A DNA stretch of 43,002 nucleotides from Caballeronia sp. (lineage in GTDB: Bacteria; Pseudomonadota; Gammaproteobacteria; Burkholderiales; Burkholderiaceae), in NCBI RefSeq assembly GCF_028292365.1, contig NZ_JAQGMM010000141.1:1-43002 (forward strand), in the 5' to 3' direction. Made by a program: the position numbers and the translations under genes. Shown here piece by piece: positions 5,647 through 29,171 of this stretch; the first letter of the stretch is position 1; the number at the start of each line of letters is the position of its first letter. Under the pieces are notes generated by a model. It saw nothing but the letters and a program-made list of their open reading frames with translations, had not been told where the DNA came from and did not search any database.

Positions 5647-5660
5647 TTTGGAGACGCCCC

Positions 5661-13033: not shown

Positions 13034-13044
13034 GCGGTTACGTT

Positions 13045-13868: not shown

Positions 13869-14252
13869 TCAGGCGATACCATCCAGCAGGTCCAGCAACG
13901 CGTCTCCGTCTACTGGCTTTCTGAAGAAACCTAGTGCGCCTCTGCGCAGATAGTAGTCTTCCGCATGCCCGCTCGGTTTTCCCGTGATCACTATGACCGG
14001 CGTGGCCGCGTCCGAATGAACCGTTCTATCGAGCACTTGAATGCCGTCAACCGGACGCATTCCCAAGTCGGTAATAACGCATACCAGACCCGCGTAACCG
14101 TCGGAGAAAAAGTCCAGCGCAGATTCGTAGACCCGTGTTCCATAGCCGCCCGAGGCCAACAGGTTCGCCAGCGACGCCAGCACGCGCCGGTCATCATCAA
14201 TCACGGCAACGGTTCGAACTGGAGGCGTGGGAATTTTTTTTATTCCGGTCAT
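13869..14252 (-). CDS. Single-domain response regulator (receiver only)
   Basis: A 127-residue stand-alone receiver domain. The acidic pocket (IDDD, residues 18-21), phospho-acceptor Asp62 (CVITDLGM), Thr90 (VIVITG) and Lys112 (FFRKPVD) are all present, so it should be phosphorylatable. It has no output domain and is likely a phosphate shuttle or sink, or a regulator acting by protein contact. It starts 26 bp after the FixJ-type gene on the same strand, presumably the second gene of that operon. The ribosome binding site is weak (GAGACGCG). Confidence 0.85.
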   Translation of the reverse strand: MTGIKKIPTPPVRTVAVIDDDRRVLASLANLLASGGYGTRVYESALDFFSDGYAGLVCVITDLGMRPVDGIQVLDRTVHSDAATPVIVITGKPSGHAEDYYLRRGALGFFRKPVDGDALLDLLDGIA

Positions 14253-14278: not shown

Positions 14279-14917
14279 TCAAACACCGAACGTGGTCATT
14301 GACGATGTTTCGAGCTGCAATTTGCTCGCCAGCCTGACCAGCGTGGCAAATGAACCGGCTTGCATTTTTCTCATGATGTGGCCGCGATGTACCTGCACGG
14401 TGTATTCGGTGATACCCAATACCGACGCCGCCTGCTTGTTGAGCAGGCCGCTTGCAAGCAACGGCAAAAGCTCCTGCTCACGAGGCGTCAACGATTGGTA
14501 AAGAGCCACGAGCGCCGCTGTATCTTCCGCTTCCTTGCGAAGAATGTGCGCGCGAGCGAGTGCCGCGTCAACCGCATGCATCAACGCATCTTCATCGAGG
14601 GGCTTGGTGAGGAAGTCAACAGCCCCACCCTTCATGGCAAGGACCGTGGACGGCACATCTCCACTTCCGGAGATGAAGATCACGGGAATCTGCGAGTCCC
14701 TGCTGACAAGCTTCTGGACTTCCAGCCCATTCATGCCTGGCATTCTCAAATCCAGGATCAGACATGCAACGGCGTCTTGACGCGGTGTGTCCAGAAATTC
14801 CCTGCCCGAGTTGAATGCGTGGACGTCTCTTCCGTTTGCGCGCAACAGAGCACAGAGTGCTTCTCGTACCCGTCTGTCGTCGTCGACCACATACACCAGT
14901 TCGCTTGGCGGTTCCAT
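14279..14917 (-). CDS. FixJ-type response regulator (receiver + LuxR helix-turn-helix)
   Basis: A 212-residue regulator. The start at 14917 (MEPPSELVYVVDDD) has GGAG 6 nt upstream; the frame from 14953 lacks one. The receiver has the VDDD pocket, Asp56 (LILDLRMPG), Ser83 and Lys105 (FLTKPLDED). The C-terminal LuxR-type DNA-binding domain reads SLTPREQELLPLLASGLLNK and ITEYTVQVHRGHIMRKMQ. Such regulators bind short dyads as dimers when phosphorylated. Its upstream region contains a palindrome, CATTACATGAACATGCAATG, which I infer to be its own binding site. The partner kinase is likely 15251-16681, the seven-PAS kinase, or both. Confidence 0.9.
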   Translation of the reverse strand: MEPPSELVYVVDDDRRVREALCALLRANGRDVHAFNSGREFLDTPRQDAVACLILDLRMPGMNGLEVQKLVSRDSQIPVIFISGSGDVPSTVLAMKGGAVDFLTKPLDEDALMHAVDAALARAHILRKEAEDTAALVALYQSLTPREQELLPLLASGLLNKQAASVLGITEYTVQVHRGHIMRKMQAGSFATLVRLASKLQLETSSMTTFGV

Positions 14918-15005: not shown

Positions 15006-15115
15006 GTGTCGACAAAAAATTATAGCCATCGGCATGGTCATGCGGAAGCGCGCCAACCGGGTAGCGCATTACATGAACATGCAATGGCGCCGCCCGATAT
15101 GAAGTTGTAGGCTTG
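15006..15115 (-). promoter_or_regulatory. Regulatory segment, copy 1: palindrome plus TATAAT before the FixJ-type gene
   Basis: It contains the near-palindrome CATTACATGAACATGCAATG (15067-15086) and, on the minus strand, a perfect TATAAT (15019-15024) facing the FixJ-type gene. The two are 42 bp apart, which puts the palindrome centre near -64, a class I activator position; no good -35 box is seen. Almost the whole segment recurs at 19786-19886. It probably drives the FixJ-type gene and lone receiver by autoactivation. Confidence 0.65.
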
Positions 15116-15250
15116 GGAGTTGTTGCGAAACGTCCCACATGGAATCTGTTAATGCAGGTCTGCAAAAGCCCTGGAATTGACGTGTGGGTGAACGATCCTG
15201 CGACGAGAGGAGCTAGTCATCGCGATGAGACCAGGCAGGCGCACACAACG

Positions 15251-16681
15251 TCAGCGTGCTGTTGTGTTCGACGTCTCTATCGGAAGGCTGAAGCTGAAGG
15301 TTACGCCGCGCGACATACTGCGCACTGCCCAAATCCGGCCAGTGTGTGCTTCGATGATGGACCGGCAGATTGCCAGTCCCATGCCCATCCCTGTTTCCTT
15401 TGTGGTGAAAAATGGCTCAAAAATCTTCTCGAAGTCCACATGCCCCGTACCGTGATCCTCTACGTCGATCACCACATCGTCCGCTTCGCGGCGCGAGCGA
15501 ATCACTAGCAGTCTGGGCCGTTCCTCCGTTGCCGCTAAGGCTTCGATCGCGTTGCGCACGAGATTCACGAGCACCTGCTGAATCTGAACCGCGTCCGCAC
15601 TGATCCTCGATACATTTTCGCCCAATATTGTCTCTAGCGAAACCGCGTTGCGCTGGATGTCGTCGGCCATCAGCGTGCATACCTGAAGAATCAGCTTGTT
15701 GATATCGAGGTCGATCTTTTGGAGGACCGTGTGCCTGAAGAGTGCCCGAATGCGGCCTACCACGTCTGCCGCGGAATTCGCGTCACGGAGAACCTGCTCG
15801 GCCGAGTATTTGGCCTCTTCGATCTTGGGCGGCGTTGCTGCAAGCCATCGCACACATGCGCGTCCATGCGCCACGATGGCCTGGAGTGGCTGGTTGAGTT
15901 CGTGGGCGATTGAGGCGGACAGTTCGGCGACAGCCGCGAGCCTCGACGCCTGCGCCAGCTTCTCCTGCGCATCGCGCAAGGCCTTCGACAATTCCTCGCC
16001 GTCATCGAGACCGACATCGAGGCCGAAGAACTTCATCACTTGCGCCCCGGCCGCTTCGGTACTGTGTTGCTCTCTATCGTGATCGATTTCGAGCCGTGAA
16101 AGCAGGTCCGGCTCGTCCGATAGCTGCTTGAGGAGCGCGACGAGATGGTGCCGCACGTTTTCGGACCGGCGCGCTCCTTCCTCGATTGCAATGGCCAATC
16201 CCGCCCACCGCGGCTGCCGATACTGGTCAGCCAGATAGGCCCGGACAATGATCTGCGCAATGAGGTTGAAGTGGTCCACGAGATACAGCGAGACATCGAC
16301 CAGAAGTTCTTTCGCAATACGCTCGTCCAACTCTCCCAGCGCGATGTACGTGCTCCAGATTTCTCGCAGCCCCAACCGCAACGCCTGAAGCAGGCTCTGC
16401 AGCGGCACGCGTTGATGCTCTCGCCTTTGGCTGATTTCCCGAAAGACATCCATGTCCTGTGTGGATGGAGGCTCGCCCGACAACAGTGTCTCGAACCATA
16501 CTTTGGCCGACAGCGTGACGGATTCCTGAACATCCCGTTTTGCAGCCGGTGCGAGTAATTTGTATCCGTCGAGCGGCGTCAGTGTCTCAAGCGTGCGTTC
16601 GACGACAAGCGTCAGATCGGCTGCGATAGAAGCGGTTTTTTCCCGCAAGTGATTGCTGATTCTTGGAGCTTTGGCGAACAC
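15251..16681 (-). CDS. Soluble histidine kinase
   Basis: A 476-residue kinase without membrane segments. Residues 1 to about 225 form a helical, RsbR-like N-terminal region of unknown ligand. A short coiled coil (230-250) leads to the phospho-acceptor His260 in SASIAHELNQPLQAI. The ATP-binding domain has the N box (NLVRNAIEAL, about 373-382), G1 (DVEDHGTG), the F box (FEPFFTTKE) and G2 (GMGMGLAICRS). The core closely resembles that of the seven-PAS kinase (shared RACVRWLAA/QACKRWLAA, IRALFR). It lies upstream of the FixJ-type gene on the same strand but is separated by the 333-bp regulatory region, so it is a likely partner with its own promoter. Confidence 0.9.
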   Translation of the reverse strand: MFAKAPRISNHLREKTASIAADLTLVVERTLETLTPLDGYKLLAPAAKRDVQESVTLSAKVWFETLLSGEPPSTQDMDVFREISQRREHQRVPLQSLLQALRLGLREIWSTYIALGELDERIAKELLVDVSLYLVDHFNLIAQIIVRAYLADQYRQPRWAGLAIAIEEGARRSENVRHHLVALLKQLSDEPDLLSRLEIDHDREQHSTEAAGAQVMKFFGLDVGLDDGEELSKALRDAQEKLAQASRLAAVAELSASIAHELNQPLQAIVAHGRACVRWLAATPPKIEEAKYSAEQVLRDANSAADVVGRIRALFRHTVLQKIDLDINKLILQVCTLMADDIQRNAVSLETILGENVSRISADAVQIQQVLVNLVRNAIEALAATEERPRLLVIRSRREADDVVIDVEDHGTGHVDFEKIFEPFFTTKETGMGMGLAICRSIIEAHTGRIWAVRSMSRGVTFSFSLPIETSNTTAR

Positions 16682-17032
16682 GGATAGGTATCTGTCAGTA
16701 ACGAGGCGCGATTTCGATTAACAAGGAGCGCCGGTGCAGCGAGTGTTAAAGCTGCGCACCGACCCGTTCCCGCCTGACACCCTGCAATAAGATTTGACGC
16801 GGCGTATTATGTGGCAAAAACGAGTCGTTCCCGGCGAAGCGCCTGTGAGCTGTCCGGCAGTGATCGACAAGCGCGCTACCCTTTTCCGGCCCCGCGCTTC
16901 GATCTCGATCCAGTGCACACATGATCTCCTGGCGCGGCGCGGTCCGCCATCCCCCGTACAGGGGATGCGCTTCAATAAATTGGGGGATGGTGGCAAGCAC
17001 GGTCACCCCCACCCATAATGTGTGACTGAAAA
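16682..17032. other. Divergent intergenic region between kinase and MalT-type regulator
   Basis: 351 bp without a convincing gene. It must hold the promoters of both flanking genes. The only strong structure is the dyad at 16948-16967. Confidence 0.4.
16948..16967 (+). promoter_or_regulatory. CATCCCC/GGGGATG dyad upstream of the MalT-type gene
   Basis: A perfect 7-bp inverted repeat with a 6-nt centre (CGTACA), 66 bp before the ATG at 17033. A further GGGGGATGG follows at 16983-16991, a possible extra half-site. It is a candidate operator for the adjacent LuxR-type regulator or another activator; no T-run supports a terminator. Confidence 0.35.
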
Positions 17033-19768
17033 ATGCGTGTAGTTAAAGAAACGTCCGAGAGCGGGCTGCACCTTTTCCTTGCAACGAAGATCGTTTCGCC
17101 GCGGCCGCCGGTGGACTTGATCATTCGTCCGCGACTCGCCGGTCTGGCTGAGTACGCCTTGAGCAAACGTCTCACCGTGATCAAGGCGCCCGCCGGATTC
17201 GGTAAAACTTCACTGGCAGTCATCTGGCTCGACCAACTGCGCGCGAACGGTGCGAAGGTGGCATGGCTGTCGCTCGATGCAGAGGACGACGATCCGGCGC
17301 GCTTCCTCAATTATCTGGCGCATGCATTGCGACATGCTTGCGGCAATGTAGGCGCCGCCGCGATCAGCCTGACTGCCGATGCCGCATTCGTCCCTCCACA
17401 CGCCATTGTCGCCACACTGATCAACGAGCTTGTTGCACTCGACAATGAAGTCGTCCTGTTTTTGGACGACTATCACCTGATCGGCCTTCCAGCAGTACAC
17501 GACGCGATGTCGTTCTTTATAGAAAAGGCACCGCCACATGTGCATGTGGTCCTCTGCAGTCGCACAGATCCACCGCTGCCGCTCGCGAGACTCAGAGCAG
17601 GGGGCGGCCTGCTGGAAATCGATGCGTCAGCGTTGCGTTTCGACTTCGATGAAACGAGGCGCTTCGTCGAACACGCATTGCCCGGCATGCTGAACGCTTC
17701 CCACATCGAGACGCTATTTGCGAGCACGGAGGGTTGGGCTGCGGCATTGCGCATCTCCCTGTCCGTGCTGTCGCGCGAGGGACACCAACTGGTTCAACGG
17801 CGCAATGCGCCGTCAGGTAAGTCGCGGCCGTTCGCCGCCTATATCGAACACATGTTTGAGCGGCTGTCCGCCGAAATGATCGAGTTCATGCTGCGCACGT
17901 CGATACTCGACCGGTTGAACGCGCCGCTCTGCGAAGCGATAACGGGCCTGCGCACGAGCCAGCGCATGCTAGACGAAATCGCCGAGGGACATATGTTGTT
18001 GCAGGCGCTCGACGGCGACGGGCAATGGTTCCGCTATCACCATCTGATGGGCGAGTACTTGCGCACGAAGCTCGAGGCACAGCACGCCGACGAGGTGGCG
18101 GAACTGCATTGCCGTGCGTGCGAGTGGTACGGCACGCAGGAGTGGTGGACGGAGGCAGTCAAACATGCAATCGCCGCGGGCATCACAGATAACGCGATTT
18201 GCCTGATGGAGCGATGCGCGATGGCGCTAGTCAAGAAAGGCGATCTGCTGACGCTGCTTGCTTTGCAGCGCCGGTTTCCCGCGGGTCTGGCCGCTGCAAA
18301 GGTGAAAGTTACGCTGGCGATCGCTTGGGGAATGGCGCTTGCCATGCATTTCGAAGAGGCGCTCGCGATGCTCGATGCGCTCGAACATGAAATCCCATCC
18401 CACGCTAGCGGCGAACCCAAAGACATCTGGTGGGAATGCCAGGCGATCCGCTCGGTCGTCGCGGGACTGAAGGACGATCCCGAGCGGGCGCTCGCTATCG
18501 CTGAGCCATGCCTTGAGCGACCGTCTGCCGATATTTGGACAACTAATGTGGCATCCAACGTCGCGCGCTTCGGGCATTGGAAGCGCGGCAATCTCGAAGC
18601 GCTTTACGCCACCCCATGGATACCCTATTCAATCGAAGAACGTCAGCGCAACCTGTATTCTTCGGTCTACCGGCTGTGCCTGCTAGGACATGCCGAGATG
18701 CAACAGTTGCACTTTGGGCTTGCCGAACGGTATTTCACGGAATCGATGCAACTGGCGGAACGCCATGCCGGTCCGGATTCGATCCCGGTAGCGCTGTGCG
18801 CGCCGATGCTCGGACAGATCTGGTACGAACAAGGCCGGCTGAACGAGGCTGAAACGCTCGTTGGCCGGTTAATGCCGGTTATTGACGTTGCGGTCTTGCT
18901 CGATAGCGTGTTAATTGCTTATCGCCTCCTCGTCCGAATCGCAATCGCGCGTTCGGATGTGAGCCAGGCATACGGATTACTCGATCGGGCGCAGGCGCTG
19001 GGTACTGCACGTCAATGGGAGCGGATGACTGCCGCTGCCCTTGTCGAACGCATAGGGCTATATCTTGCGGAAGACAGGATGTTCGAGGCCACTGCGTGCC
19101 AGGCGCAACTCGATCAGCTGGCGCGCTCCAATGCCCATCCTTCACGTTCCATCTCTTTCGAAATCGAGAACTATCGTGCGCTCGGAGCGGCCTCTGTTGC
19201 CGCGGCCCAGTACCGGACCGAAGAGGCCATAGCAATGCTGAGCGCCGCGCTGCAGAACGCCGAGCGACGACATGGGGATGTCCTGGCGATACGTTTGCGA
19301 ACCTTGCTTGCGCTAGTCTGGCTGGCAGCGAACGAACGCACGCGTGCGATCGAGGTCTTTCTCGACGTCCTGAAGGTCGCCGCGCCCGCAGGCGTGTACC
19401 AATCCATTCTCGAGGTAGGTCCGGACATTGGATCGTTGCTGCAGGCCGTTTGCGAAGACGCGCAGCACACGGCGCAAACGAACGGACTGATCCCCTACGC
19501 TAATCATCTGCTCGATGGCTGGCGGATGCTTTATCAGCCCGGCGGCAACCGTCCGCGCGACACTGAGCGCGGATCGCTTAGCTCAAGGGAGCGCGAAATT
19601 GTCGACTTGATTGCCCGAGGACAGTCAAACAAGGCAATCGCGAATACGCTTGGGATTGGCGCTGAAACCGTCAAGTCCCATGTAAAGAGCATCTTCATGA
19701 AACTAGGCGTCGATAAGCGAGCTCAAGCCGTTGCACGTGCGCGGGACCTCGGTCTTGTGGGTCCATAA
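17033..19768 (+). CDS. MalT-type LuxR-family ATP-dependent transcriptional regulator
   Basis: A 911-residue STAND-type regulator like MalT and AlkS. Near the N-terminus is the Walker A loop APAGFGKTS (residues 52-60), then a Walker B-like VVLFLDDYHLI at about 144-154 and the sensor segment VHVVLCSRTDPPLPLARLR. The middle (about 350-800) is a helical TPR-like region that would bind an inducer. The C-terminus is a LuxR helix-turn-helix (LSSREREIVDLIARGQSNKA, GAETVKSHVKSIFMKLGV). Such proteins oligomerise with ATP and ligand to activate carbon-source operons. The inducer is unknown. It is divergent from the 476-residue kinase and followed by the second copy of the palindrome segment. The ribosome binding site is weak. 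Confidence 0.9.
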   Translation: MRVVKETSESGLHLFLATKIVSPRPPVDLIIRPRLAGLAEYALSKRLTVIKAPAGFGKTSLAVIWLDQLRANGAKVAWLSLDAEDDDPARFLNYLAHALRHACGNVGAAAISLTADAAFVPPHAIVATLINELVALDNEVVLFLDDYHLIGLPAVHDAMSFFIEKAPPHVHVVLCSRTDPPLPLARLRAGGGLLEIDASALRFDFDETRRFVEHALPGMLNASHIETLFASTEGWAAALRISLSVLSREGHQLVQRRNAPSGKSRPFAAYIEHMFERLSAEMIEFMLRTSILDRLNAPLCEAITGLRTSQRMLDEIAEGHMLLQALDGDGQWFRYHHLMGEYLRTKLEAQHADEVAELHCRACEWYGTQEWWTEAVKHAIAAGITDNAICLMERCAMALVKKGDLLTLLALQRRFPAGLAAAKVKVTLAIAWGMALAMHFEEALAMLDALEHEIPSHASGEPKDIWWECQAIRSVVAGLKDDPERALAIAEPCLERPSADIWTTNVASNVARFGHWKRGNLEALYATPWIPYSIEERQRNLYSSVYRLCLLGHAEMQQLHFGLAERYFTESMQLAERHAGPDSIPVALCAPMLGQIWYEQGRLNEAETLVGRLMPVIDVAVLLDSVLIAYRLLVRIAIARSDVSQAYGLLDRAQALGTARQWERMTAAALVERIGLYLAEDRMFEATACQAQLDQLARSNAHPSRSISFEIENYRALGAASVAAAQYRTEEAIAMLSAALQNAERRHGDVLAIRLRTLLALVWLAANERTRAIEVFLDVLKVAAPAGVYQSILEVGPDIGSLLQAVCEDAQHTAQTNGLIPYANHLLDGWRMLYQPGGNRPRDTERGSLSSREREIVDLIARGQSNKAIANTLGIGAETVKSHVKSIFMKLGVDKRAQAVARARDLGLVGP

Positions 19769-19785
19769 AGACGACGTTGCCGATC

Positions 19786-19886
19786 GTGCCGACGGGAAAT
19801 TATAGCCATCGGGATCGTCACCTGGAAGCAGGGGCAGCATTACATGAATATGTAATGGCATCACCGGATGTGAAGTTGCAAGCTTG
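19786..19886. promoter_or_regulatory. Regulatory segment, copy 2: perfect palindrome before the seven-PAS kinase
   Basis: Same orientation and order of elements as copy 1 at 15006-15115: ATTATAGCCATCGG, then GGAAGC, then the palindrome, then GAAGTTG...GCTTG. Here the 20-mer CATTACATGAATATGTAATG (19838-19857) has perfect 8-bp arms. TATAAT is again on the minus strand (19799-19804), now 33 bp from the palindrome instead of 42, about one helical turn less. That promoter would point back into the MalT-type gene; the seven-PAS kinase lies on the other side, so the segment may act in both directions. Confidence 0.65.
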
Positions 19887-20133
19887 TCCTCGCATGTTCA
19901 TCGGCTCTACCGAAGATCGCTGATACGGCGCGCTCGGACAGGCACGACAACCATCAGCCCGACTATGCGTGTCATGGCGGTGTGCGCGACCAGAACCCGT
20001 CACTACTACACAGAATAACCGGCGACGCGCCCCACTCAAGTTGTAAGCAAGGCACCCTGGCGCCCGAAAAAAACCATTGGCGTGAGGCCGCAGAATAGTG
20101 CTATCCAACGCGCCGACGAACTCCGAGGTTGAC

Positions 20134-23100
20134 ATGCTTACTATGTTGATACCACGCTCGTCGCGGGCTGCCGCACTCAGCGTCGCCATAGCCGGTGCGT
20201 CAGGAGTGGCAGGGTTGCTCGAACCTGTTACGGGTTGCCTCAGCCTCATTTTGGTTGTCCTGTTCGCGCATTTTCTCGGCCGCAGCTTCGGGCGTCTCGC
20301 CGTGGGTTTCGCCTCGCTTGGGATCGTCGGAGCAATGTTCGCTTCCAGTCACCCTCCTCCAGCCTCCGACTCTGTCAGCCGTTGCGCTACCGCGATCGTC
20401 ACCATCGCCGCAGCATGGCTTTGTGCGGAGCTGGTTTCCCGACGCCCCCGGCAGCCGGGCTCAACAACCCGACTCAAGGATGACCCGCTCGACCTGCCGA
20501 TTGATCAGCTCAGCCGGAATATCTGGTCTCGATCCGGAGATGGCGAACTTGAATACGTCAGCCAATCGATCCTGGACTATTCGGGGCGAACGTTTGAAGA
20601 ACTGCGCTGGCTTCATACGCTTACGCATCCGGACGACGCAGGGATCCCGGCGCAAGCATTTCAACGCGCAAAAGAAACGGGAGAAGCCCAGGAATTTCAG
20701 TGCCGCTACAGGTCAAGGGCCGGGACCTACGAGTGGTTTGCGGCAATGCTTCACACACAACGTGACCGGCACAACAAAGTCTCCCGCGTGTACGGTATGC
20801 ACTGGAACATCAACCAACAAAAAAATGAGGAAGAGCGACTCCGCGAACAAAACCACACGCTTCACAGCATCAGCAATCTTTTTCCCGGCCACGCATGGAC
20901 CGCGCTACCCGATGGCTCCGTTGAATACCTAAGTCCTGGCCTATGCGAATACACAGGCATGAAAGAAGTGCATAGCTACGACACTTTCCGGGCTGCAATC
21001 CACCCGGATGACAGCCAGGCAAATGACCGGTATTGGGACGCACTCGGGGCCGGCAACGAGCAGGGAGAGCTTGAGTTCCGACTCAGGCGGTCGGACGGCA
21101 TCTACCGATGGTTCCTCTGCCGCGTCAAAGCCATCAGAAGCGACGGTGGCCGGCTCCTGCGATGGGTCGTTGTGAGCTGGGACATACACGACCGGAAGAC
21201 CGCGGAATCTCTTCTTCGAACCGAAGAGGAAACCTGTCGGCGAATCGTGGATAGCGTGCCGGCATGCGTCTGTGTTGGCAGACCCACCGGCGAGCTTGTC
21301 TACGTGAATAAAGTGGGCGTAGCCGCGCTGGGAAGACCGCTGGAGGAAATAGTCGGAGACGGATGGATGACTTCCATTCACCCCGATGATGTACAGGCCG
21401 CGCGGCAACAATGGAAAACGCGCATTGCCGCGTGTGAACCGGTCGACCTTGCCGTGAGGATGTTGCAGCACGATGGCGTATACCGCTGGCAGCGTCTACT
21501 AGCCCGGCCAGCGCGCGCCACGAACGGGGACCTCATCAACTGGTACCTCGTCGGAATAGAAATCGAAGAAACCATCAAGGCTCAACAGGCTCTAGCGGCA
21601 AGTGAGAGAGAAGCCAAGGAGCTGCTTGACCGGTCACCGGGCCGCTTCGCTACCCGGACAGAGCAAGATTTCGACTACATCAATCAGGAGATTCTTGAGG
21701 AAGCGGGAACCACACTTGAGGGCATACAAAATCTCGGCTATCTGACTTTCATTCACCCCGATGACCGCGACAGGGTCAAGGAGGGTCATCTTCGCTCTGT
21801 TCAGGAAAAGTGCGCGCACGATACGACCTACCGATGGGCAGACTGCGACGGTAATTATCGATGGCGTCACTCGCGCTCCGTTCCTTATTTCAACGAAGAC
21901 GGAAGTGTCTACAAGTGGTATTCGGTGACTATCGACATTGATGATCTTTACAAATCCAAAGAGGTCATCCGTGAACGTAAAGTTCAACTGAATTGGCTGA
22001 CAGAGAATGTTCCGAGCCTGCTCTGGCGTACGGACGCCCGTGGCCGCCTGGAATATGTAAACAAGCGTGCTGAAGACTACACGGGACTACGGCTCGGTGA
22101 TCTGATCGCGAGCGGCTGGCTCCGCCTGGTGCACCCAGATGACGCTGCGTCAACATTTAAAGCCTGGCAAGATTGCCTCGATGGCGGGAGACCTTACGAC
22201 TCGGTCCATCGGTTTCGCGCGGCCGACAACACGTATCGCTGGTTTCAATGCAAAGGGTCTCCCGTGCGGGATGCCCACGGTGAGATTGTGAATCGGTATG
22301 GTCTTTCGACGGATATCCACGAGCGCCAGTTAGTGCAGGAGACCCTTCGCAAGGAAGAGCTTAGTTTGCGAAGGCTCGTCGATGCATTGCCCGCGATGAT
22401 CTGGAGAGCCACACCGCAAGGACATGTCGACAGATGGAATCTGCAGATGCTGACGTTCATGGGACAGAGCGAGGAGGAATTCGACAAGGAAATGTTACTT
22501 CGCCGCATCCCGGAAGCTGACCGTCCCCGTGTCCGTTCGCGTTGGAAGCGAGCTGTCCAGGAAGGTGTGTCCTATCAGGACACGTACCAGGTTACTGGCG
22601 CCGATGGGAAACCGCACTGGTATCTCGCGCGTGGCGAGCCGTTTCGCGACGAAAGCGGACAGATCCTGCACTGGTACAGCGTGTGTACCGACATCAACGA
22701 TCTGAAGCAGATGGAAGCAGTACTCGAGCAGCGGGAGTATCAGCTGCGTGAGTTTATCGAGACCATTCCGGGCATGCTCTGGTGCAATGACCCACAAGGC
22801 AAACCCACTTACATCAATCGAAAAACTTTCGAATTCCTTGGCCTGAGTGCTTCGCAGCTCGTGGACCGTGGCTATGAGAAAACCATTCATCCTGACGACC
22901 TGGACTGCCTGCTTCAGGCGTGGACACACGCGATCGAAACTGGCGAACCGTACTACCACGTTGCCCGGCTTCGCCGGAAAGACGGGATTTACCGGTGGTA
23001 CCAGCACACCGCTGAAGCAATGAAAGACTCAGACGGCAACATTGTTCAATGGTATGGACTCAGTCTTGATATCGACGAACGCAAGCGTGCGGAGGACCGG

Positions 23101-23814
23101 CTCAGACAGACGCAGGCTGAACTCGCTCGGGCAACCCAGATTGCCACGGTTGCAGAACTCTCGGCGTCCATCGCACACGAACTCAATCAGCCTCTCACGT
23201 CCGTTATAGCTAATGCGCAGGCGTGCAAACGGTGGCTCGCAGCGTCTCCGCCCAACTTGATGGAAGCCAGGGCTTCCGTGGAGAGCGTGGTTCGGGATGC
23301 CCGTTCCGCTGACGAAACGATGCAATGCATTCGCGCACTGTTCAGGCGACAAACTTTCCAGAGGAGGGAATGGAATGTGAAGGACATGGTTCTCGAATCC
23401 GTCAGACTGCTACAGGAAGACGAAACCAGGCGCACCGCCGACATTGAGTTCGACTTGCCCGATGGTCTGCCTCCGGTGTTCGTCGACCAGATACAGATTC
23501 AGCAGGTCCTTCTCAACCTTGTTTCGAACGGGATAGAGGCCACGGAAAACTCAGGACGGACACCTAAGATTCTTATTAGCGCGAGCTCTATAGACGAGCG
23601 ATCCGTGCTGCTCGAGGTTATCGACAACGGTTCGGGCATTGTTGGTGGAGACAGCATATTCGACGCATTCGTCACGACCAAGAGCAAGGGAATGGGCATC
23701 GGGCTTGCGGTGTCCCGCTCTGTTATTGAAGCTCACGAGGGTCGGCTTGCCGCCGCCAACAACGAAGGTTACGGAGCAACCTTCAGCGTTGTCCTACCCG
23801 TCTTACCTGTCTAG
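20134..23814 (+). CDS. Histidine kinase with seven PAS domains
   Basis: About 1226 residues from the ATG at 20134 (GAGG 5 nt upstream; a GTG at 20098 is an alternative). The first 100 residues hold about three hydrophobic helices, so it is membrane-anchored. Seven PAS_3-type repeats follow, each with a Y(V/I/L)(N/S)-type strand; six end in a HPDD turn and the sixth has IPEAD instead. Each repeat ends with a YRW..(C) and WY.(V/L) segment. The kinase core has His1015 (SIAHELNQPLTSV), the N box NLVSNGIEATE, G1 VIDNGSGI and G2 GMGIGLAVSRS. It has no receiver. It likely phosphorylates the FixJ-type regulator and/or the lone receiver; its upstream region shares their palindrome. PAS ligands cannot be told from sequence. 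Confidence 0.9.
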   Translation: MLTMLIPRSSRAAALSVAIAGASGVAGLLEPVTGCLSLILVVLFAHFLGRSFGRLAVGFASLGIVGAMFASSHPPPASDSVSRCATAIVTIAAAWLCAELVSRRPRQPGSTTRLKDDPLDLPIDQLSRNIWSRSGDGELEYVSQSILDYSGRTFEELRWLHTLTHPDDAGIPAQAFQRAKETGEAQEFQCRYRSRAGTYEWFAAMLHTQRDRHNKVSRVYGMHWNINQQKNEEERLREQNHTLHSISNLFPGHAWTALPDGSVEYLSPGLCEYTGMKEVHSYDTFRAAIHPDDSQANDRYWDALGAGNEQGELEFRLRRSDGIYRWFLCRVKAIRSDGGRLLRWVVVSWDIHDRKTAESLLRTEEETCRRIVDSVPACVCVGRPTGELVYVNKVGVAALGRPLEEIVGDGWMTSIHPDDVQAARQQWKTRIAACEPVDLAVRMLQHDGVYRWQRLLARPARATNGDLINWYLVGIEIEETIKAQQALAASEREAKELLDRSPGRFATRTEQDFDYINQEILEEAGTTLEGIQNLGYLTFIHPDDRDRVKEGHLRSVQEKCAHDTTYRWADCDGNYRWRHSRSVPYFNEDGSVYKWYSVTIDIDDLYKSKEVIRERKVQLNWLTENVPSLLWRTDARGRLEYVNKRAEDYTGLRLGDLIASGWLRLVHPDDAASTFKAWQDCLDGGRPYDSVHRFRAADNTYRWFQCKGSPVRDAHGEIVNRYGLSTDIHERQLVQETLRKEELSLRRLVDALPAMIWRATPQGHVDRWNLQMLTFMGQSEEEFDKEMLLRRIPEADRPRVRSRWKRAVQEGVSYQDTYQVTGADGKPHWYLARGEPFRDESGQILHWYSVCTDINDLKQMEAVLEQREYQLREFIETIPGMLWCNDPQGKPTYINRKTFEFLGLSASQLVDRGYEKTIHPDDLDCLLQAWTHAIETGEPYYHVARLRRKDGIYRWYQHTAEAMKDSDGNIVQWYGLSLDIDERKRAEDRLRQTQAELARATQIATVAELSASIAHELNQPLTSVIANAQACKRWLAASPPNLMEARASVESVVRDARSADETMQCIRALFRRQTFQRREWNVKDMVLESVRLLQEDETRRTADIEFDLPDGLPPVFVDQIQIQQVLLNLVSNGIEATENSGRTPKILISASSIDERSVLLEVIDNGSGIVGGDSIFDAFVTTKSKGMGIGLAVSRSVIEAHEGRLAAANNEGYGATFSVVLPVLPV

Positions 23815-23861
23815 GTTTCCCAACAGGAGGCGGGAGCCAGGCGATTTTCGCCGGTGTCGAA

Positions 23862-24164
23862 TCATGCCTTCACACGTAGAGCGGCGTTCGCCGCGACCAA
23901 TAGACCCGCGTCATGCTCGCGAAGCGTTGCCTCTACCTCATCGAATGCCTCTTTCAGCTCGCGGCGCCCCGACTTCGTCGAGTTTCCGCTACCGCGGATG
24001 ACTTCGGCCTCGTTCTTCAGTCGCTTCACGAGCTTCGTCGCGCACCGGCTGTCAAGGACCGCGTTTTGAACAAAGCCGTTGATCTGGCCTATCAGCGCGG
24101 ACAGCGTCGGTTCGGTCGATTGATTCAGACGCTCGTCCGCGTCAAGAAGCGGTCGCTCTTTCAT
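23862..24164 (-). CDS. Small hypothetical protein (100 aa)
   Basis: A 100-residue protein, start at 24164 (MKERPLLDADERLNQSTEP) with GGAG 7 nt upstream; the longer open frame to 24314 has no ribosome binding site. It is soluble and mostly helical, rich in charged residues (LVKRLKNEAEVIRGSG, ELKEAFDEVEATLREHD), ending in a small Ala-rich tail. I do not recognise the family. It converges with the seven-PAS kinase gene (stop-to-stop 47 bp). A palindrome of the FixJ-associated type lies 173 bp upstream, so it may belong to that regulon. Confidence 0.65.
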   Translation of the reverse strand: MKERPLLDADERLNQSTEPTLSALIGQINGFVQNAVLDSRCATKLVKRLKNEAEVIRGSGNSTKSGRRELKEAFDEVEATLREHDAGLLVAANAALRVKA

Positions 24165-24667
24165 CTTGATTCTCCGGTTAGCACCACTTGACCACCACCA
24201 CGCATTCGATTGCCCACCATGCCACACACGCCAAACGGCATCTTCGGAGGCGACGATGCGAGTCTTTGTGTCAGCTATTTTTGCGCTTTGATCAGGCGTT
24301 GGCAGAACCAACATATATCGTTGTGCCCGGCCGAGACATTACATGTTTATGTAGTCGCCAAGGCGCCCGTTCTCAATGATCAACAAGCGTCGAGCGCCAA
24401 TAGCCTGGCTGGATTGATTCCAGATTCATGTAGTAGTCGTCCGTCGCTCCACCCATTATCATCAAATAATATGCACTCTTAACCGTCAAAATATAATCAC
24501 CACGTGCCGATAGTGCTGATCTCTTCACCCTGGTGGAAGTCTCCTTGCTCTTTGCCGCACCCCTACAACGATCGCGGTTGGGGTCCACTCGTTTTCAGTG
24601 CATAGGGGCGCCAACGGGGATCTCATGATCTCGCAGCACACGGTCAGACAACCAGAGGTGTAAAGAC
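24165..24667. other. Divergent non-coding region between two small genes
   Basis: About 500 bp between the 24164 leftward gene and the RRM-like gene. It contains the operator candidate at 24337-24356 and an AT-rich patch around 24450-24500. No convincing gene was seen. Confidence 0.4.
24337..24356. promoter_or_regulatory. Third CATTACAT-type palindrome
   Basis: CATTACATGTTTATGTAGTC: the left arm is identical to the perfect site at 19838, and the right arm (ATGTAGTC) differs at two positions from ATGTAATG. It lies between the divergent 24164 and 24668 genes and could control either. Confidence 0.5.
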
Positions 24668-24922
24668 ATGAAACTATGGATCAGTAATCTGCCGCCGAAC
24701 AAGAGCGACGAAGACGTCCGTGCATTTGTGCGGAAATATACGCAGGTTGAAATCGACGCAATGACCCGCATTGACGGCGATGGCTCACGCCCTGGTGTGC
24801 TGATTGATATCGATGGAGCCACTCAATTGATGCTATTGGCCATGCAACAGCGATTACACCAGCTGTATTGGGATCAACATGAGCTCGCCGTTCACATCAT
24901 GTCCTTCTCGGACCAAGGCTAA
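24668..24922 (+). CDS. Small RRM-like RNA-binding protein
   Basis: An 84-residue protein whose order of strands and helices fits an RNA recognition motif: KLWISNLPPNKSDEDVRAFV (strand 1, helix 1), then a strand with TRIDGDGSRPGVLIDID (RNP-1-like region), helix 2 (TQLMLLAMQQRLHQLYW) and a last strand (LAVHIMSF). RNP-1 aromatic residues are not well kept, so RNA binding is inferred from fold only. GAGG lies 9 nt before the ATG. Its neighbours suggest a regulatory or stress role, but nothing specific can be said. Confidence 0.65.
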   Translation: MKLWISNLPPNKSDEDVRAFVRKYTQVEIDAMTRIDGDGSRPGVLIDIDGATQLMLLAMQQRLHQLYWDQHELAVHIMSFSDQG

Positions 24923-25022
24923 GCGCCGGGCAAAACGCGGCCTTCGTGCAACATCGCCGCGAAAGCCGGCATGGCATGCCTTGACGGGTTCGAATTGAAC
25001 GGCATTTTTAAAGGAAAACACG

Positions 25023-25151
25023 ATGCTTATCTTGAAGATCACGCTGGCAACAACGCTGACCGTGGCCGGTCCGCCTCTCCTCGCGGCGGTGTGTTTGTGG
25101 AGCATCGGTGCGATTGGACGCATGGCGAAGGCCGTCAGGCAAACCTTTTGA
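25023..25151 (+). CDS. Small single-span membrane protein (42 aa)
   Basis: ATG at 25023 with AGGA 7 nt upstream (AAAGGAAAACACG), ending in TGA at 25149-25151. The 42 codons encode a short basic start, a hydrophobic helix (ITLATTLTVAGPPLLAAVCL) and a basic tail (RMAKAVRQTF), the composition expected of an inner-membrane micropeptide. It follows the RRM-like gene by 100 bp. Alternative frames over the same DNA look less protein-like. No family was recognised. Confidence 0.5.
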   Translation: MLILKITLATTLTVAGPPLLAAVCLWSIGAIGRMAKAVRQTF

Positions 25152-25607
25152 CAAGCGTCGCGTTGCGCAACGTTCACGGAAGCGCTCATCGAATTGGTTC
25201 TCACGATCGCCCTCACAGTCATGCGCCGTCTGCCTAATTGCCCGTATATTAATTAACTAGTAATACATCACAGCGGTGTCAGACCAGGTGGGCTGCCGGT
25301 GATATTCAGCGAAGACGCCACCGTGATACCGCCCCGATGGCACAACATAAACATGTAATAACGGTGTCGAACCCGGCTTGCTACCATTGGTCCGTCGAAG
25401 ATCAATGCACGTCTCACATGGCCCCGTCCGATGTCAATATCTCGTTGGCTCGTAACGGAGAAAAGTGCGCGTGGATTCCAGTCAACCACGAGGGTAATCC
25501 GGGCAAACACTAAAAGGGCAATCGCGAGCGACAGGACCACTGAGGTTGCTTCAATCGAGAACCTTTCCGCTCAAAACCAGCATGTTCAGCAGCCAGAGAG
25601 AGACAAC
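25152..25607. other. Leader region of the YWTD-dehydrogenase-CoA-transferase operon
   Basis: About 450 bp. It contains the operator candidate at 25341-25360 and an AT-rich dyad ATTAATTAACTAGTAAT near 25247. Open frames here (for example from 25431) lack a ribosome binding site and look non-coding. Confidence 0.4.
25341..25360. promoter_or_regulatory. Fourth palindrome of the CATTACAT type
   Basis: Read on the minus strand it is TATTACATGTTTATGTTGTG, sharing the 14-base core ATTACATGTTTATG with the site at 24337. It lies about 250 bp before the first start codon of the 25608-29171 operon, which makes that operon a candidate regulon member. Confidence 0.45.
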
Positions 25608-25709
25608 ATGACCTCCACCATCAACCCTATCGTCAATCACACGCTCCGGACGAACGGCATTCGCCAGCATTATCCCGATTGGGGTAGCGGCCCAAAGGAC
25701 GCACCATGA
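25608..25709 (+). pseudogene. N-terminal stub of an alpha/beta hydrolase
   Basis: 33 codons whose product begins MTSTINPIVNHTLRTNGIRQ and continues HYPDWGSGP, matching the first strands of haloalkane/epoxide hydrolase-like proteins (NGI..HY.DWGSGP then normally a strand and HG). It stops at KDAP without the catalytic domain. Its stop overlaps the next start as ATGA (25706-25709), so translation of the stub could be coupled to the YWTD gene. It is either decay by deletion or a leader reused for coupling. Confidence 0.6.
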
Positions 25710-26620
25710 CCTTGCCTCAAATTAGCGGAACACACGGTTGCGCGGACGCGTCCCGCTCTGGCCGATTGTTTTTCCTCGAACTGAGCGGCGGCCGCATTCA
25801 CTCGATCAATCCAGACGGATCCGATCGCAAGACGATCGTCACGAATTGCCGCCTCCCCGACGGTATCGACGTGGAGCCGGATGCCGGTCATATCTATTGG
25901 ACTAACATGGGTACGATCGGCCTCGATGATGGGTCGATCGAGCGCGCCAATCTCGACGGCAGCAACCGCGTGGTCATCGTCCCGCAAGGCGTCACGCACA
26001 CACCAAAGCAGATTCATCTCGACACGGCTGGCGGCAAGCTCTATTGGTGCGACCGCGAGGGAATGCGCGTGATGCGCGCCAACCTTGACGGCTCTCAAGT
26101 CGAAACGCTGGTCGCGACGGGGCGCGGCGACCAGCACCGGCTCGACCAGACCCGGTGGTGCGTCGGAATCGCTGTCGATCCGAAGCTCGGGAAACTCTAC
26201 TGGACCCAGAAAGGCCTGGACAATGCCGGCCTGGGCCGCATCTTCCGCGCCAACATCGACATCCCGCAGGGCGAAGACCCGGCAAACCGCTCCGACATCG
26301 AGGTGCTGATCGACCGGCTGCCAGAACCCATCGACCTCGAGCTCGACGTGGTGAACCGCGTCCTCTATTGGACTGACCGCGGTGATCCTCCACGCGGCAA
26401 TACCGTCAATCGCGTGGCGATCAATGGAACGGCAGCGCCTGAGATCCTCGTTACGCATCTAATGGAGGGAATCGGCATTGCACTCGACGTTCCCGGTAAT
26501 CGGATGTTCGTCACGGACCTGGCCGGTTCCGTCTATTCCGCTGATCTCGATGGAAAGAACCAGCGAAACTTCCTCTACGCCCAAGGCAATCTCGCCGGCA
26601 TCGCCTATGCCGAAGTCTGA
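25706..26620 (+). CDS. YWTD-repeat beta-propeller protein
   Basis: A 304-residue protein made of LDL-receptor-class B (YWTD) repeats, forming a six-bladed propeller. Repeats are visible as IYWTNMGT, LYWCDREG, LYWTQKGL, LYWTDRGD and FVTDLAGS, each followed by an (R/S)ANLDGS-type segment. No signal peptide is present, so it is cytoplasmic. The function in bacteria is not settled; relatives are SMP-30/lactonase-like, and a lactone or ester hydrolase role is possible. The ATG overlaps the stop of the hydrolase stub, and the dehydrogenase gene follows 22 bp later, so the three are one operon. Confidence 0.85.
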   Translation: MTLPQISGTHGCADASRSGRLFFLELSGGRIHSINPDGSDRKTIVTNCRLPDGIDVEPDAGHIYWTNMGTIGLDDGSIERANLDGSNRVVIVPQGVTHTPKQIHLDTAGGKLYWCDREGMRVMRANLDGSQVETLVATGRGDQHRLDQTRWCVGIAVDPKLGKLYWTQKGLDNAGLGRIFRANIDIPQGEDPANRSDIEVLIDRLPEPIDLELDVVNRVLYWTDRGDPPRGNTVNRVAINGTAAPEILVTHLMEGIGIALDVPGNRMFVTDLAGSVYSADLDGKNQRNFLYAQGNLAGIAYAEV

Positions 26621-26641: not shown

Positions 26642-27622
26642 ATGACTGATACCACGCCCATCCGTCGCATCGCCGTCATTGGCACCGGCGTGATTGGCGC
26701 CAGTTGGACCGCGCTGTTTCTCGCCAAGGGACTGCAGGTCGTTGCGACGGACATCGCGCCGAACGCAGAAGCGCAACTCAGGACGTTCGTCGAGGCTGCC
26801 TGGCCGGCGCTCAAGAGATTGGGCCTTTCGCCCGGAGCAACGCAAGCGAACCTGACGTTCACGCCGGTGCTCGCGCAAGCGCTCATTGATGCGGACCTCG
26901 TCCAGGAAAACGGGCCCGAGCGGCTCGAATTCAAGCAGAAGCTCTATGGTCAACTCGATGAGCTGCTGCCACCCGACGTGATCATCGCGTCGAGCACGTC
27001 GACCCTCCCCATGAGCAGCATCCAGTTGGGCGCCGCGCTGCATCCCGGGCGCTGCGTCATCGGCCATCCGTTCAATCCGCCGCACTTGATCCCGCTGGTC
27101 GAGATCGTCGGCGGGGCAAAGACCTCCGAAGAGACAATCCTGCGCGCTGAGGCGTTTTACACATCAATCGGAAAGCGGACGGTGCGCCTGCACAAGGAAC
27201 TGCAGGGCCACGTTGCCAACCGTCTGCAGGCCGCGTTGGCGCGTGAGGTCTATTACCTGGTGGCTGAGGGTGTCCTGAGCGCCGCCGACGTCGACACGGC
27301 CCTCTCCTGGGGGCCGGGCCTGCGCTGGGGCGTGATGGGCAACATGATGCTCAATCACCTCGGCGGCGGCCCGGGCGGCATCGAGCACTTCTTCCAGCAG
27401 TTCACCGGCCCGTTGACGGCATCGTGGAAGGACCTCGGTTCGCCGGTGCTGACGCCGGAGGTGCAGAAGAAGCTCATCGACGGTGTCCATGCCGAGGTCG
27501 GATCACGTTCCATTGAGGAGCTGGAGGCGGAACGCGACGAGATGCTGCTCGGACTCATCGAACTGCGCACTAAAGCTATGGACGCGGCCACGTCACGCAA
27601 GGCCGCGGCTCGCGCACGCTGA
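26642..27622 (+). CDS. 3-hydroxyacyl-CoA / carnitine-type dehydrogenase
   Basis: A 326-residue NAD-dependent dehydrogenase. The Rossmann fingerprint is IAVIGTGVIGASW (Gly14, Gly16, Gly19), with Asp at the end of strand 2 (VVATDIAP) indicating NAD. The catalytic region reads SSTSTLPMSS then GHPFNPPHLIPLVEIVGG, with the His-Glu pair of the 3-hydroxyacyl-CoA dehydrogenase/L-carnitine dehydrogenase/lambda-crystallin group. The C-terminal helical domain follows (LQGHVANRLQAALAREVYYL). GGAGAAGTGAC precedes the ATG. The next gene is a CaiB-type CoA-transferase, consistent with oxidation of a hydroxy acid as its CoA thioester or of a carnitine-like compound. The exact substrate is unknown. Confidence 0.88.
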   Translation: MTDTTPIRRIAVIGTGVIGASWTALFLAKGLQVVATDIAPNAEAQLRTFVEAAWPALKRLGLSPGATQANLTFTPVLAQALIDADLVQENGPERLEFKQKLYGQLDELLPPDVIIASSTSTLPMSSIQLGAALHPGRCVIGHPFNPPHLIPLVEIVGGAKTSEETILRAEAFYTSIGKRTVRLHKELQGHVANRLQAALAREVYYLVAEGVLSAADVDTALSWGPGLRWGVMGNMMLNHLGGGPGGIEHFFQQFTGPLTASWKDLGSPVLTPEVQKKLIDGVHAEVGSRSIEELEAERDEMLLGLIELRTKAMDAATSRKAAARAR

Positions 27623-27665: not shown

Positions 27666-29171
27666 ATGAACAATTTGACCAAGCTTCGAATCCAAAAAGA
27701 ATCCGATCGGCTCACCGAGACCATTCAATCGAAGCTCGCGAATCCGGAGCAGAGCTCGGATTTCGACCTGCACGGCGCGCTCAATGACGTACTGAAAGAC
27801 GTCGGGTTAACGGCGGCGGACAGCGGTGGCAAGATCACTTTCTACGGCCGGGATCCCATCATTCCCAGCCTCTTCCGGTTCGGCTCCATGCCCGCGATCG
27901 CGCTGGCCGCCAAGGCCGTCGGCGTCGCTGCGCTGTGGCGGCTCCGGACCGGCGAGGAACAGGACATCGAAGTGGATGTTCGCAAGGCGTTGCGGCGCTT
28001 CGCCGGCTTCTTCGATCTGAAATGGGAAACGATCAATGGACGTCCTCCGGTCCTCGAAGTCGATACGAATCTCTTCCGCGAAACCCGCGACGGGCGGCAC
28101 GTCGTGCCCCTGAACGTCTACCCCAGGCTGGCCACCCGCGAGCTCGGCTTGCTCAGGTGCGACGCCAGCCCGGAATCCGTGCGCAACGCTATTCTGCAGT
28201 GGCGCGCCGACGACCTGGAGAATGCGGCGGCGGAGGCCGGCATTGTCATCGCGAAGGTGCGCACTTTCGAGGAATTCCAGAGGGAGCTTCAGTACACGGA
28301 GGTGCTCTCGAGAATGTCGCTGATCACCGTGGAAAAGATCGGCGAAAGTGAGCCGATCCCCTTCAAGAAGGATGGCACCAGTCCGCTGGATGGCATTCGC
28401 GCGCTCGGAATGGGTCACGTGATTGCCGGAGCGGCCATCGGGAGGGACCTCGCTTTGTACGGGGCCGATGTCCTCAATATCTGGCGGCCGCACGATAGCG
28501 AGATCGAGGCGTTCGCGTGGGACGCACAGGTCGGAATGCGCTCAACGATCCTGGATTACTCGAAGGAGGACCGCGCGAGATTCGATCATCTGCTGAAAGA
28601 TGCAGACGTCTTCTTCGCGAACAAGCGTCCGGGCTACCTGGAACGCCATGGTCTTGATGCGGAAGAGCTCAGCGCGAAAAAGCCGGGGTTGATCCACGCG
28701 AATGTCCTGCTTCACGGTGACAAGGGCCCCTGGAAGAATCGTCCGGGATTCGATGAAATCGGCGCAGCCGTCGCGGGGCTGTTCGCCGTCGAAGGTACGC
28801 TCACGCGCCCCAAATCGCCGCCGATCATCCCCATTGTCGACAACGTGGTGGGCTGGCTCGGGACGGTCGGTGTACTCGCGGCGCTGCGCCGGCGTGCGGT
28901 CGAGGGTGGTAGCTATCGAGTCACCGTTTCTTTGACCCGAACCGTGCTCTGGCTCTTCTCGCTCGGCATCTTCGACAGGCACTATGCCCGGGCAACCGCC
29001 GGATCTTCCGGCGAGCACACCAACGTCGCTCCCGACCTGTTTATGGCCGAGACCCCGCTGGGCACGTATCAAGGCATGACCGACCAAGTGGTCTTGTCGA
29101 AGACGCCTGGATCTTTCAGGACGGTGCTCGTGCCACGAGGATCGAGCAAGCCCGAATGGCTGACGCGGTAA
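27666..29171 (+). CDS. Class III (CaiB/BaiF) CoA-transferase
   Basis: A 501-residue CoA-transferase. The CaiB/BaiF part starts near residue 235 (PLDGIRALGMGHVIAGAAIG) and contains LDYSKEDRARFDHLLKDADV, then GPWKNRPGFDEIGAAVAGL. The first 230 residues are a CaiB-like half (KAVGVAALWRLRTGEEQDIE, VPLNVYPRLATRELG), so the protein is a fused two-part form seen in some Burkholderiales and actinobacteria rather than the usual 400-residue enzyme. It should transfer CoA between acids. It lies 43 bp after the dehydrogenase in the same operon and would activate its substrate or release its product. Confidence 0.87.
   Translation: MNNLTKLRIQKESDRLTETIQSKLANPEQSSDFDLHGALNDVLKDVGLTAADSGGKITFYGRDPIIPSLFRFGSMPAIALAAKAVGVAALWRLRTGEEQDIEVDVRKALRRFAGFFDLKWETINGRPPVLEVDTNLFRETRDGRHVVPLNVYPRLATRELGLLRCDASPESVRNAILQWRADDLENAAAEAGIVIAKVRTFEEFQRELQYTEVLSRMSLITVEKIGESEPIPFKKDGTSPLDGIRALGMGHVIAGAAIGRDLALYGADVLNIWRPHDSEIEAFAWDAQVGMRSTILDYSKEDRARFDHLLKDADVFFANKRPGYLERHGLDAEELSAKKPGLIHANVLLHGDKGPWKNRPGFDEIGAAVAGLFAVEGTLTRPKSPPIIPIVDNVVGWLGTVGVLAALRRRAVEGGSYRVTVSLTRTVLWLFSLGIFDRHYARATAGSSGEHTNVAPDLFMAETPLGTYQGMTDQVVLSKTPGSFRTVLVPRGSSKPEWLTR

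What the first reader, a model, noticed from the sequence alone, without database searches (positions are those of the whole stretch)
15006..25360. A shared CATTACAT-N4-ATGTAATG palindrome marks four promoters around a two-component cluster
Sites at 15067-15086, 19838-19857 (perfect), 24337-24356 and 25341-25360 (reverse) share the ATTACATG core and an ATG arm. They lie before a FixJ-type regulator, a seven-PAS kinase, a small unknown gene and a YWTD/dehydrogenase/CoA-transferase operon. I infer a dedicated regulon of the FixJ-type regulator (14279-14917) that links an unknown signal to a catabolic operon.
Basis: partly seen in the sequence, partly recalled or inferred. Interest (0 to 1): 0.72.

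Follow-up and report, generated by a model that had tools for sequence, protein, structure and literature searches.

The report
Private operator of a two-component circuit
In a Caballeronia-type bacterium one palindromic DNA signal occurs five times around a sensor-regulator gene cluster and three times at a sister cluster, and it is likely the docking site through which the regulator would switch on itself, its sensor and a small set of metabolic and efflux genes.

Summary
The four sites are real (4 found, 0.12 expected). As half-site + spacer + -10 box the signal has 8 matches in 8.08 Mb, all in this window or a paralogous locus on contig C495; control 0. It precedes orthologues of the FixJ/StyR-type regulator (13 of 13 loci at >=76% identity). 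It precedes poxB in 10 of 11 loci from genomes with the regulator and in 0 of 19 from genomes without it. A dedicated regulon is therefore well supported; binding is inferred.

Corrections: sites 1 and 2 are copies of one divergent promoter. Site 2's intact TATAAT points away from the kinase. Site 3 and the fifth site form a poxB-type tandem promoter. Site 4 is at noise level by sequence alone but has the exact 23-nt spacing, facing the YWTD operon. Relatives add efflux and pyruvate-oxidase operons to the set. The bare palindrome at loose thresholds is not enriched genome-wide. A known kind of system; I found no description of this operator in the papers searched.

The parts
13869..14252 (-). 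receiver-only response regulator (127 aa), second gene of the regulator operon
   Evidence: ORF; FixJ-receiver match 70 bits; homologue next to the regulator in C495 and other loci
14279..14917 (-). FixJ/StyR-type response regulator, the proposed reader of the operator
   Evidence: Response_reg + GerE; closest solved chain StyR 1yio, 172.6 bits, FixJ 5xso 136.2
15019..15024 (-). predicted -10 (TATAAT) of the regulator operon, 44 nt from operator 1 (centre about -64.5)
15067..15086 (.). operator 1, regulator promoter; its other face has TAGGCT (15108-15113) at 23 nt, now facing the 3' end of the short kinase
   Evidence: 47.0 bits, + face
15251..16681 (-). short histidine kinase (476 aa); kinase core 42% identical to the seven-PAS kinase
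   Evidence: HisKA + HATPase_c
17033..19768 (+). MalT-like LuxR-type regulator (911 aa)
   Evidence: TPR_MalT + GerE; below the NCBIfam MalT cut-off, 396 of 537 bits
19799..19804 (-). TATAAT of the duplicated promoter, 35 nt from operator 2 (centre about -55.5), pointing into the 3' end of the MalT-like gene
19838..19857 (.). operator 2 (perfect palindrome), duplicate of operator 1, between the MalT-like gene and the seven-PAS kinase; kinase-facing -10 at 19879-19884 reads CAAGCT
   Evidence: (32.6 bits)
20098..23814 (+). seven-PAS sensor histidine kinase (1238 aa)
   Evidence: 7 PAS_3 stretches, HisKA, HATPase_c
24337..24356 (.). operator 3, distal part of a tandem promoter; its left face has TATGTT (24310-24315) at 23 nt
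   Evidence: 39.2 bits, - face
   Evidence: 42.4 bits
24668..24922 (+). 84-aa ORF of unknown function downstream of operators 3 and 5
   Evidence: no Pfam match
25341..25360 (+). operator 4, with TACCAT (25382-25387) at 23 nt facing the YWTD operon
   Evidence: (35.3 bits)
25706..26620 (+). YWTD / LDL-receptor-B repeat protein
26642..27622 (+). 3-hydroxyacyl-CoA dehydrogenase family protein
   Evidence: 3HCDH_N, 3HCDH; best NCBIfam L-carnitine dehydrogenase, 302 bits, below its cut-off of 414
27666..29171 (+). CoA-transferase family III domain protein (501 aa)

Best explanation
The palindrome is most likely the operator of the FixJ/StyR-type response regulator at 14279-14917 (and of its 90%-identical paralogue on contig C495), which would bind it as a phosphorylated dimer and switch on its own operon, the seven-PAS kinase and a few metabolic and efflux operons. 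At the catabolic-type promoters the operator is centred about 43.5 bp before the predicted start, with the -10 box exactly 23 nt beyond it, so the regulator would stand in for the -35 element (class II). At the regulator's own promoter the palindrome sits near -65, or about one helical turn nearer, before a TATAAT box (class I), while its other face has the 23-nt geometry, so one operator could serve both directions. Shown: the sites, their spacing, their confinement to two loci of this genome, and their co-occurrence with the regulator across genera. Inferred: binding, phosphorylation by either kinase, activation rather than repression, the transcription starts, and the signal, which I guess from the target genes to be an organic acid or similar compound.
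For: 13 of 13 regulator loci at >=76% identity (11 genomes, two of the loci being this genome's own) have the palindrome with <=1 of 12 mismatches within 400 bp upstream, 12 of 13 centred 141-162 bp upstream; reversed-pattern control never better than 3. TATAAT at 44-45 nt in 17 of 21 aligned regulator promoters and at 33-35 nt in 3. TANNNT at exactly 23 nt in 21 of 23 asymmetric and 24 of 66 oriented symmetric sites, against 1.3 per offset on average for the symmetric ones. Leave-own-out matrix: window operators 32.6-47.0 bits, best unrelated window position -3.5, best of six random windows 0.8. Composite pattern genome-wide: 8 matches, all in C490 and C495, control 0. poxB: 10 of 11 loci from regulator-bearing genomes against 0 of 19. 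YWTD operon: 6 of 8 against 0 of 5. Pattern-first search: 5 of the 6 genomes with the 20-mer at <=1 mismatch carry the regulator; 5 of 9 regulator-bearing against 1 of 290 others.
Against: No binding or expression data. Genomes are related, so the tests are not independent, and the YWTD site thresholds were chosen after seeing the data. 10 of 29 regulator homologues (all under 76% identity) have no upstream palindrome at <=2 mismatches, though most keep the recognition helix. G051 has the regulator but no site at its YWTD or poxB loci, and G365 none directly before its YWTD operon. A near-copy of site 4 in G051 lies away from that genome's YWTD operon. Two of the eight composite matches owe their score to the half-site, not to a -10 at 23 nt.
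Confidence: 0.84

Rival explanations
1. The MalT-like LuxR-type regulator (17033-19768), not the response regulator, binds the palindrome.
For: It also has a GerE domain and lies between two operators in the window and in G270.
Against: It has no match at E <= 1e-100 in 3 of 17 regulator-bearing genomes (G332, G365, G375), two of which (G332, G375) have the palindrome at <=1 mismatch before the regulator. Only some of the 14 matches are close (57-100% identity).
Confidence: 0.06
2. The regulator represses through the paired sites, as reported for StyR when both STY1 and STY2 are occupied, so that the tandem promoters are closed rather than opened by the phosphorylated regulator.
For: Six tandem promoters (window and five poxB loci) pair a symmetric with an asymmetric site 79-94 bp apart; StyR is reported to form a closing loop over two sites (PMC2442086, passages).
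Against: The class II position and TAYCAT-type -10 boxes without a good -35 fit activation, and many promoters have a single operator.
Confidence: 0.12
3. The four sites are mainly shared ancestry: a duplicated promoter plus chance look-alikes, without a regulon.
For: Sites 1 and 2 are duplicates; the bare palindrome is not enriched genome-wide at loose thresholds.
Against: Sites 3, 4 and 5 lie outside the duplicated segment and share the 23-nt spacing; the operator is kept across genera and missing from the same genes in regulator-free genomes.
Confidence: 0.04

Closest known systems
StyS/StyR and the TodT/TmoT/TutB group (aromatic catabolism)
   Same: Closest solved regulator (StyR 1yio, 172.6 bits); hexamer-N4-hexamer palindromes (ATAAACN4GTTTAT, PMC5874301 passages); main site near -40 with a further site upstream (PMC2442086 passages); control of a catabolic operon.
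   Different: Half-site TTACAT instead of ATAAAC; the StyR box is at chance level in the window (5 found, 5.41 expected); two of the three reported StyR contact residues differ (K175 and H179 are Q and G here).
FixL/FixJ (oxygen response)
   Same: Domain layout of the regulator; best NCBIfam match is FixJ (180 bits).
   Different: Below the FixJ cut-off (255) and, for the kinase, FixL (349 of 850); the gene set here is not the fix set.
TdiS/TdiR (anaerobic toluene)
   Same: PAS-kinase and NarL/FixJ-family regulator that activates catabolic promoters and its own operon promoter (PMC5874301 passages).
   Different: Reported palindrome GGTGTTCGCACC is unrelated to this one.

Membership tests
NarL/FixJ-type response regulators | Receiver domain followed by a GerE/LuxR-type DNA-binding domain | tested here: met
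   Both above Pfam cut-offs
NarL/FixJ-type response regulators | Phospho-acceptor aspartate | tested here: met
   DLRMPG motif at residue 56, aligned with StyR DMRMPG
FixJ proper | NCBIfam FixJ equivalog cut-off (255 bits) | tested here: not met
   180.3 bits
FixL proper | NCBIfam FixL cut-off (850 bits) for the partner kinase | tested here: not met
   349 bits for the seven-PAS kinase, 170 for the short kinase
StyR/TodT group | Operator ATAAACN4GTTTAT | tested here: not met
   5 matches at 3 mismatches, 5.41 expected
StyR/TodT group | Recognition residues Lys175, Val176, His179 | tested here: not met
   Q, V, G at the aligned positions; residues from PMC5874301
StyR/TodT group | Activating site about 40 bp upstream of the start | tested here: inconclusive
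   Predicted centre -43.5 from the 23-nt spacing; starts not mapped
Regulon of this regulator | Regulator binds the sites | not testable with these tools
   Only co-occurrence and conservation

The most novel reading that the evidence does not exclude
One operator, two geometries, one small travelling regulon: a single palindrome acts as a class I site toward the regulator gene and a class II site toward the kinase gene, and the operator with its 23-nt spacer has been captured as a promoter cassette by poxB, YWTD and efflux operons in the lineages that carry the regulator. In this genome two regulator paralogues with the same recognition helix share operators at both loci, and the stranded left-facing promoter at 19799-19857 makes an antisense RNA into the MalT-like gene.
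Probability: 0.3. Interest if true: 0.6.

Novelty: new member of a known kind. Interest (0 to 1): 0.5.

Why it matters
It gives a testable operator code for an apparently undescribed two-component system in Burkholderiaceae and Oxalobacteraceae: a motif, two fixed spacings, a tandem form, a list of target operons, and natural controls (the same genes without the site in genomes without the regulator). Five short DNA probes would test the proposal, and the shared targets (quinone-linked pyruvate oxidase, a FUSC-type pump, acyl-CoA enzymes) narrow the search for the signal of a seven-PAS kinase.

Tried and rejected
Rejected: (a) the bare palindrome at loose thresholds as evidence of a genome-wide regulon; it equals its control. 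(b) Site 2 as a straightforward kinase promoter. (c) Site 3 as only the promoter of the 84-aa gene: window 24377-24466 aligns at 74-82% with poxB promoters and at 77% with the YWTD promoter of an unnamed relative. (d) The Burkholderia low-oxygen lxa locus: a lead from memory; I saw one search listing, followed no paper and tested no link. (e) StyR/TodT-type boxes: at chance. (f) Rfam: no family at gathering score in the window. (g) The composite pattern at <=2 mismatches across the family is noisy, mostly in AT-rich small genomes and in one unrelated conserved element (93 of 398 genomes, list truncated). At 0 mismatches the list shows 10 genomes, 9 of them regulator-bearing (of 17) and one not (G301).

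Literature: searches were search listings; passages were read of PMC5874301 and PMC2442086 only. No paper on this operator or gene set came up in those listings; most subscription papers are not held, so absence is weak evidence. Structure prediction was not run.

Rows dropped: one search returned 80 loci. All 80 were scanned for the 20-mer at <=3 mismatches (hits in seven, L039, L040, L041, L045, L046 and, at 3 mismatches, the two Bradyrhizobium loci L054 and L058, not followed up); nine (L039-L046, L049) were mapped. The poxB test used the 30 loci returned, of 158 genomes with a match. The YWTD test used 13 operons; the matches at 42-53% identity were not examined.
Full report
THE OBSERVATION. 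The four sites exist as described and are far above chance in the window. On the scale of the genome the loose palindrome alone is not informative: the 20-mer at <=3 mismatches gives 8 places against 6 for the reversed pattern, and the 16-mer at <=2 mismatches 51 against 45. Informative is the short list at <=2 mismatches of the 20-mer: 15067, 19838, 24337 and one perfect site on contig C495 at 18036.

TWO SITES ARE ONE PROMOTER, DUPLICATED. A ~107-bp segment around 15067 recurs around 19838 (82% and 80% over two 50-nt blocks; 73%) and around the C495 site (77%). On C495 the segment separates a seven-PAS-type kinase (L036 5913-9701, minus; 83% identical to the window's) from a FixJ-type regulator (L036 10207-10845, plus; 190 of 210 residues identical), followed by a receiver-only regulator and an efflux operon (HlyD-type, FUSC, outer-membrane factor). 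The window therefore looks like this divergent pair split by a block holding a short kinase (15251-16681) and a MalT-like regulator (17033-19768), with a copy of the promoter on each side; this history is inferred. In G051 (L129) a receiver-only regulator gene lies between the MalT-like gene and the second operator, which may explain why site 2's TATAAT points that way.

CONSERVATION AT THE REGULATOR. I looked 400 bp upstream of 29 regulator homologues (recounted). All 13 at >=76% identity (11 genomes; two of the loci are this genome's own) have the palindrome with at most 1 of 12 mismatches, 12 of 13 centred 141-162 bp before the gene. Of the other 16 (50-75%), 4 have it at <=1 and 2 at 2 mismatches; 10 lack it. 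Two Paraburkholderia megaplasmids (L226, L227) have it before the regulator and again about 1.3 kb downstream, in L226 just before genes annotated with the MdtNOP efflux set. Among 21 aligned regulator promoters TATAAT stands 44-45 nt from the 16-mer in 17, 33-35 nt in 3, and is missing in 1 (Herbaspirillum); one of the 17 (L181) was aligned at a 3-mismatch site.

GEOMETRY. From the loci I collected 89 oriented sites (66 symmetric, 23 asymmetric, <=1 mismatch) and asked where TANNNT boxes fall. Asymmetric sites: 21 of 23 have one exactly 23 nt after the 16-mer. Symmetric sites: 24 of 66 at 23 nt, and 4 to 11 at each of 44-47 nt (TATAAT followed by TT counts twice), against an average of 1.3 per offset. 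The control pattern gave no sites. With a -10 box at -12 to -7, the 23-nt class puts the operator centre at -43.5, and the regulator promoters put it at -64.5 or -65.5, or about one helical turn nearer in three relatives and at site 2. Many regulator palindromes carry both: TATAAT toward the regulator and a TARGCT-like box at 23 nt on the other face, which on C495 faces the kinase.

THE FIFTH SITE AND THE TANDEM PROMOTER. Comparing loci showed a second form of the operator, TTCCAG-N-TTCATGTAA. In the own genome it occurs at <=1 mismatch only twice on C495 and once in the window, at 24418-24433. It stands 79 bp from site 3. Five of the ten poxB promoters with the asymmetric site have a symmetric one 85-94 bp upstream; the other five, the C495 copy among them, do not at <=2 mismatches, and the Herbaspirillum MAG has the pair only 46 bp apart. 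Window 24377-24466 aligns with poxB promoters (82% over 62 bp with C495, 74% over 90 bp with G017) and with the YWTD promoter of G037 (77% over 84 bp). The own genome's poxB of this type is on C495 (91% identical to the Herbaspirillum homologue), which passes the NCBIfam cut-off for ubiquinone-dependent pyruvate dehydrogenase.

SITE 4. By sequence it has 3 mismatches. But TACCAT lies at exactly 23 nt. In Undibacterium and a Herbaspirillum MAG an operator lies about 100-110 bp before the dehydrogenase gene of the corresponding operon. A near-identical site with the same spacing exists in G051 (L130), but away from that genome's YWTD operon, which argues for the site and not for the target. With a matrix trained on 40 sites from other genomes, the window's five operators score 47.0, 42.4, 39.2, 35.3 and 32.6; the best unrelated window position scores -3.5 and the best of six random windows 0.8.

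GENOME-WIDE SPECIFICITY. The composite of half-site, spacer and -10 at <=3 mismatches has 8 matches in 8.08 Mb, five in the window and three on C495; control 0. Two of the five (at sites 1 and 2, regulator-facing strand) match through the half-site and not through a -10 at 23 nt. The pattern was drawn from 37 aligned sequences, five of them from this genome, so this measures specificity, not independent discovery.

NATURAL CONTROLS. 17 of 398 genomes of the family carry the regulator at E <= 1e-60. poxB: of the 30 loci returned, 11 come from regulator-bearing genomes and 10 of these have the asymmetric operator at <=1 mismatch (the exception is a distant poxB of G051); none of the 19 others comes closer than 5 mismatches, including one poxB 84% identical. 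The ten form one clade of poxB, so gene ancestry and regulator presence are not fully separable. YWTD operon: 6 of 8 from regulator-bearing genomes have a site upstream against 0 of 5 others; thresholds were set after inspection, the G037 site and the G380 site are 2-mismatch matches, and the G380 site is 460 bp upstream. The upstream regions without a site are homologous to each other (71-89%) and shared by G051, which has the regulator. Palindrome at <=1 mismatch of the 20-mer: 5 of 9 regulator-bearing genomes against 1 of 290 others. Fisher values: 4e-7, 0.02 and 4e-8; relatedness makes them optimistic.

WHO READS IT. Starting from the pattern and not from the gene, 5 of 6 palindrome-bearing genomes carry the regulator. 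The MalT-like protein is missing from 3 of 17 regulator-bearing genomes, two of which have the operator at <=1 mismatch. The recognition helix is nearly invariant down to 62% identity, also in homologues without an upstream operator, so the helix alone does not predict the site at that gene. The closest solved protein is StyR, whose group is reported to use ATAAACN4GTTTAT (PMC5874301, passages) and whose main site lies near -40 (PMC2442086, passages). The layout is the same; the half-site and two of three contact residues differ.

WHAT IT WOULD DO. Inferred: a kinase signal phosphorylates the regulator, which raises its own and the kinase's expression, turns on the YWTD/dehydrogenase/CoA-transferase operon here and, through shared operators, poxB on C495. 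An operator at <=2 mismatches lies within about 320 bp upstream of the efflux operon in 7 of the 8 loci that hold it; the exception, C495, has the pump genes straight after the regulator operon. Pyruvate oxidase, a FUSC-type pump and acyl-CoA enzymes suggest an organic acid or a similar compound as the signal; this is a guess.

ORGANISM.

Noticed in passing
window 4364-6578: Cyanate cluster: cyanase (4364-4834), beta-carbonic anhydrase (4877-5548) and a divergent LysR regulator (5661-6578).
   Followed up: no
window 12966-13679: TctA-type transporter ORF that matches only the C-terminal quarter of the profile (positions 310-423 of 423), so probably a fragment.
   Followed up: no
window 9259-9333: Two copies of an inverted repeat CAGATTTCCGAATCA..ATTCGGAA, 48 nt apart.
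   Followed up: no
L218-L222, upstream of the YWTD operon: Regulator-free genomes and G051 share a different, mutually homologous upstream region (71-89%), so this operon seems to have two promoter versions.
   Followed up: partly
   Followed up: no
G301:C69:10215-10258: One exact operator + -10 match in a genome without the regulator at E <= 1e-60; may have a more distant regulator.
   Followed up: no
L036 5858-5873 and L039 1633-1648: Asymmetric operators with the 23-nt -10 just downstream of the kinase gene and pointing away from it; the gene they serve was not identified.
   Followed up: partly
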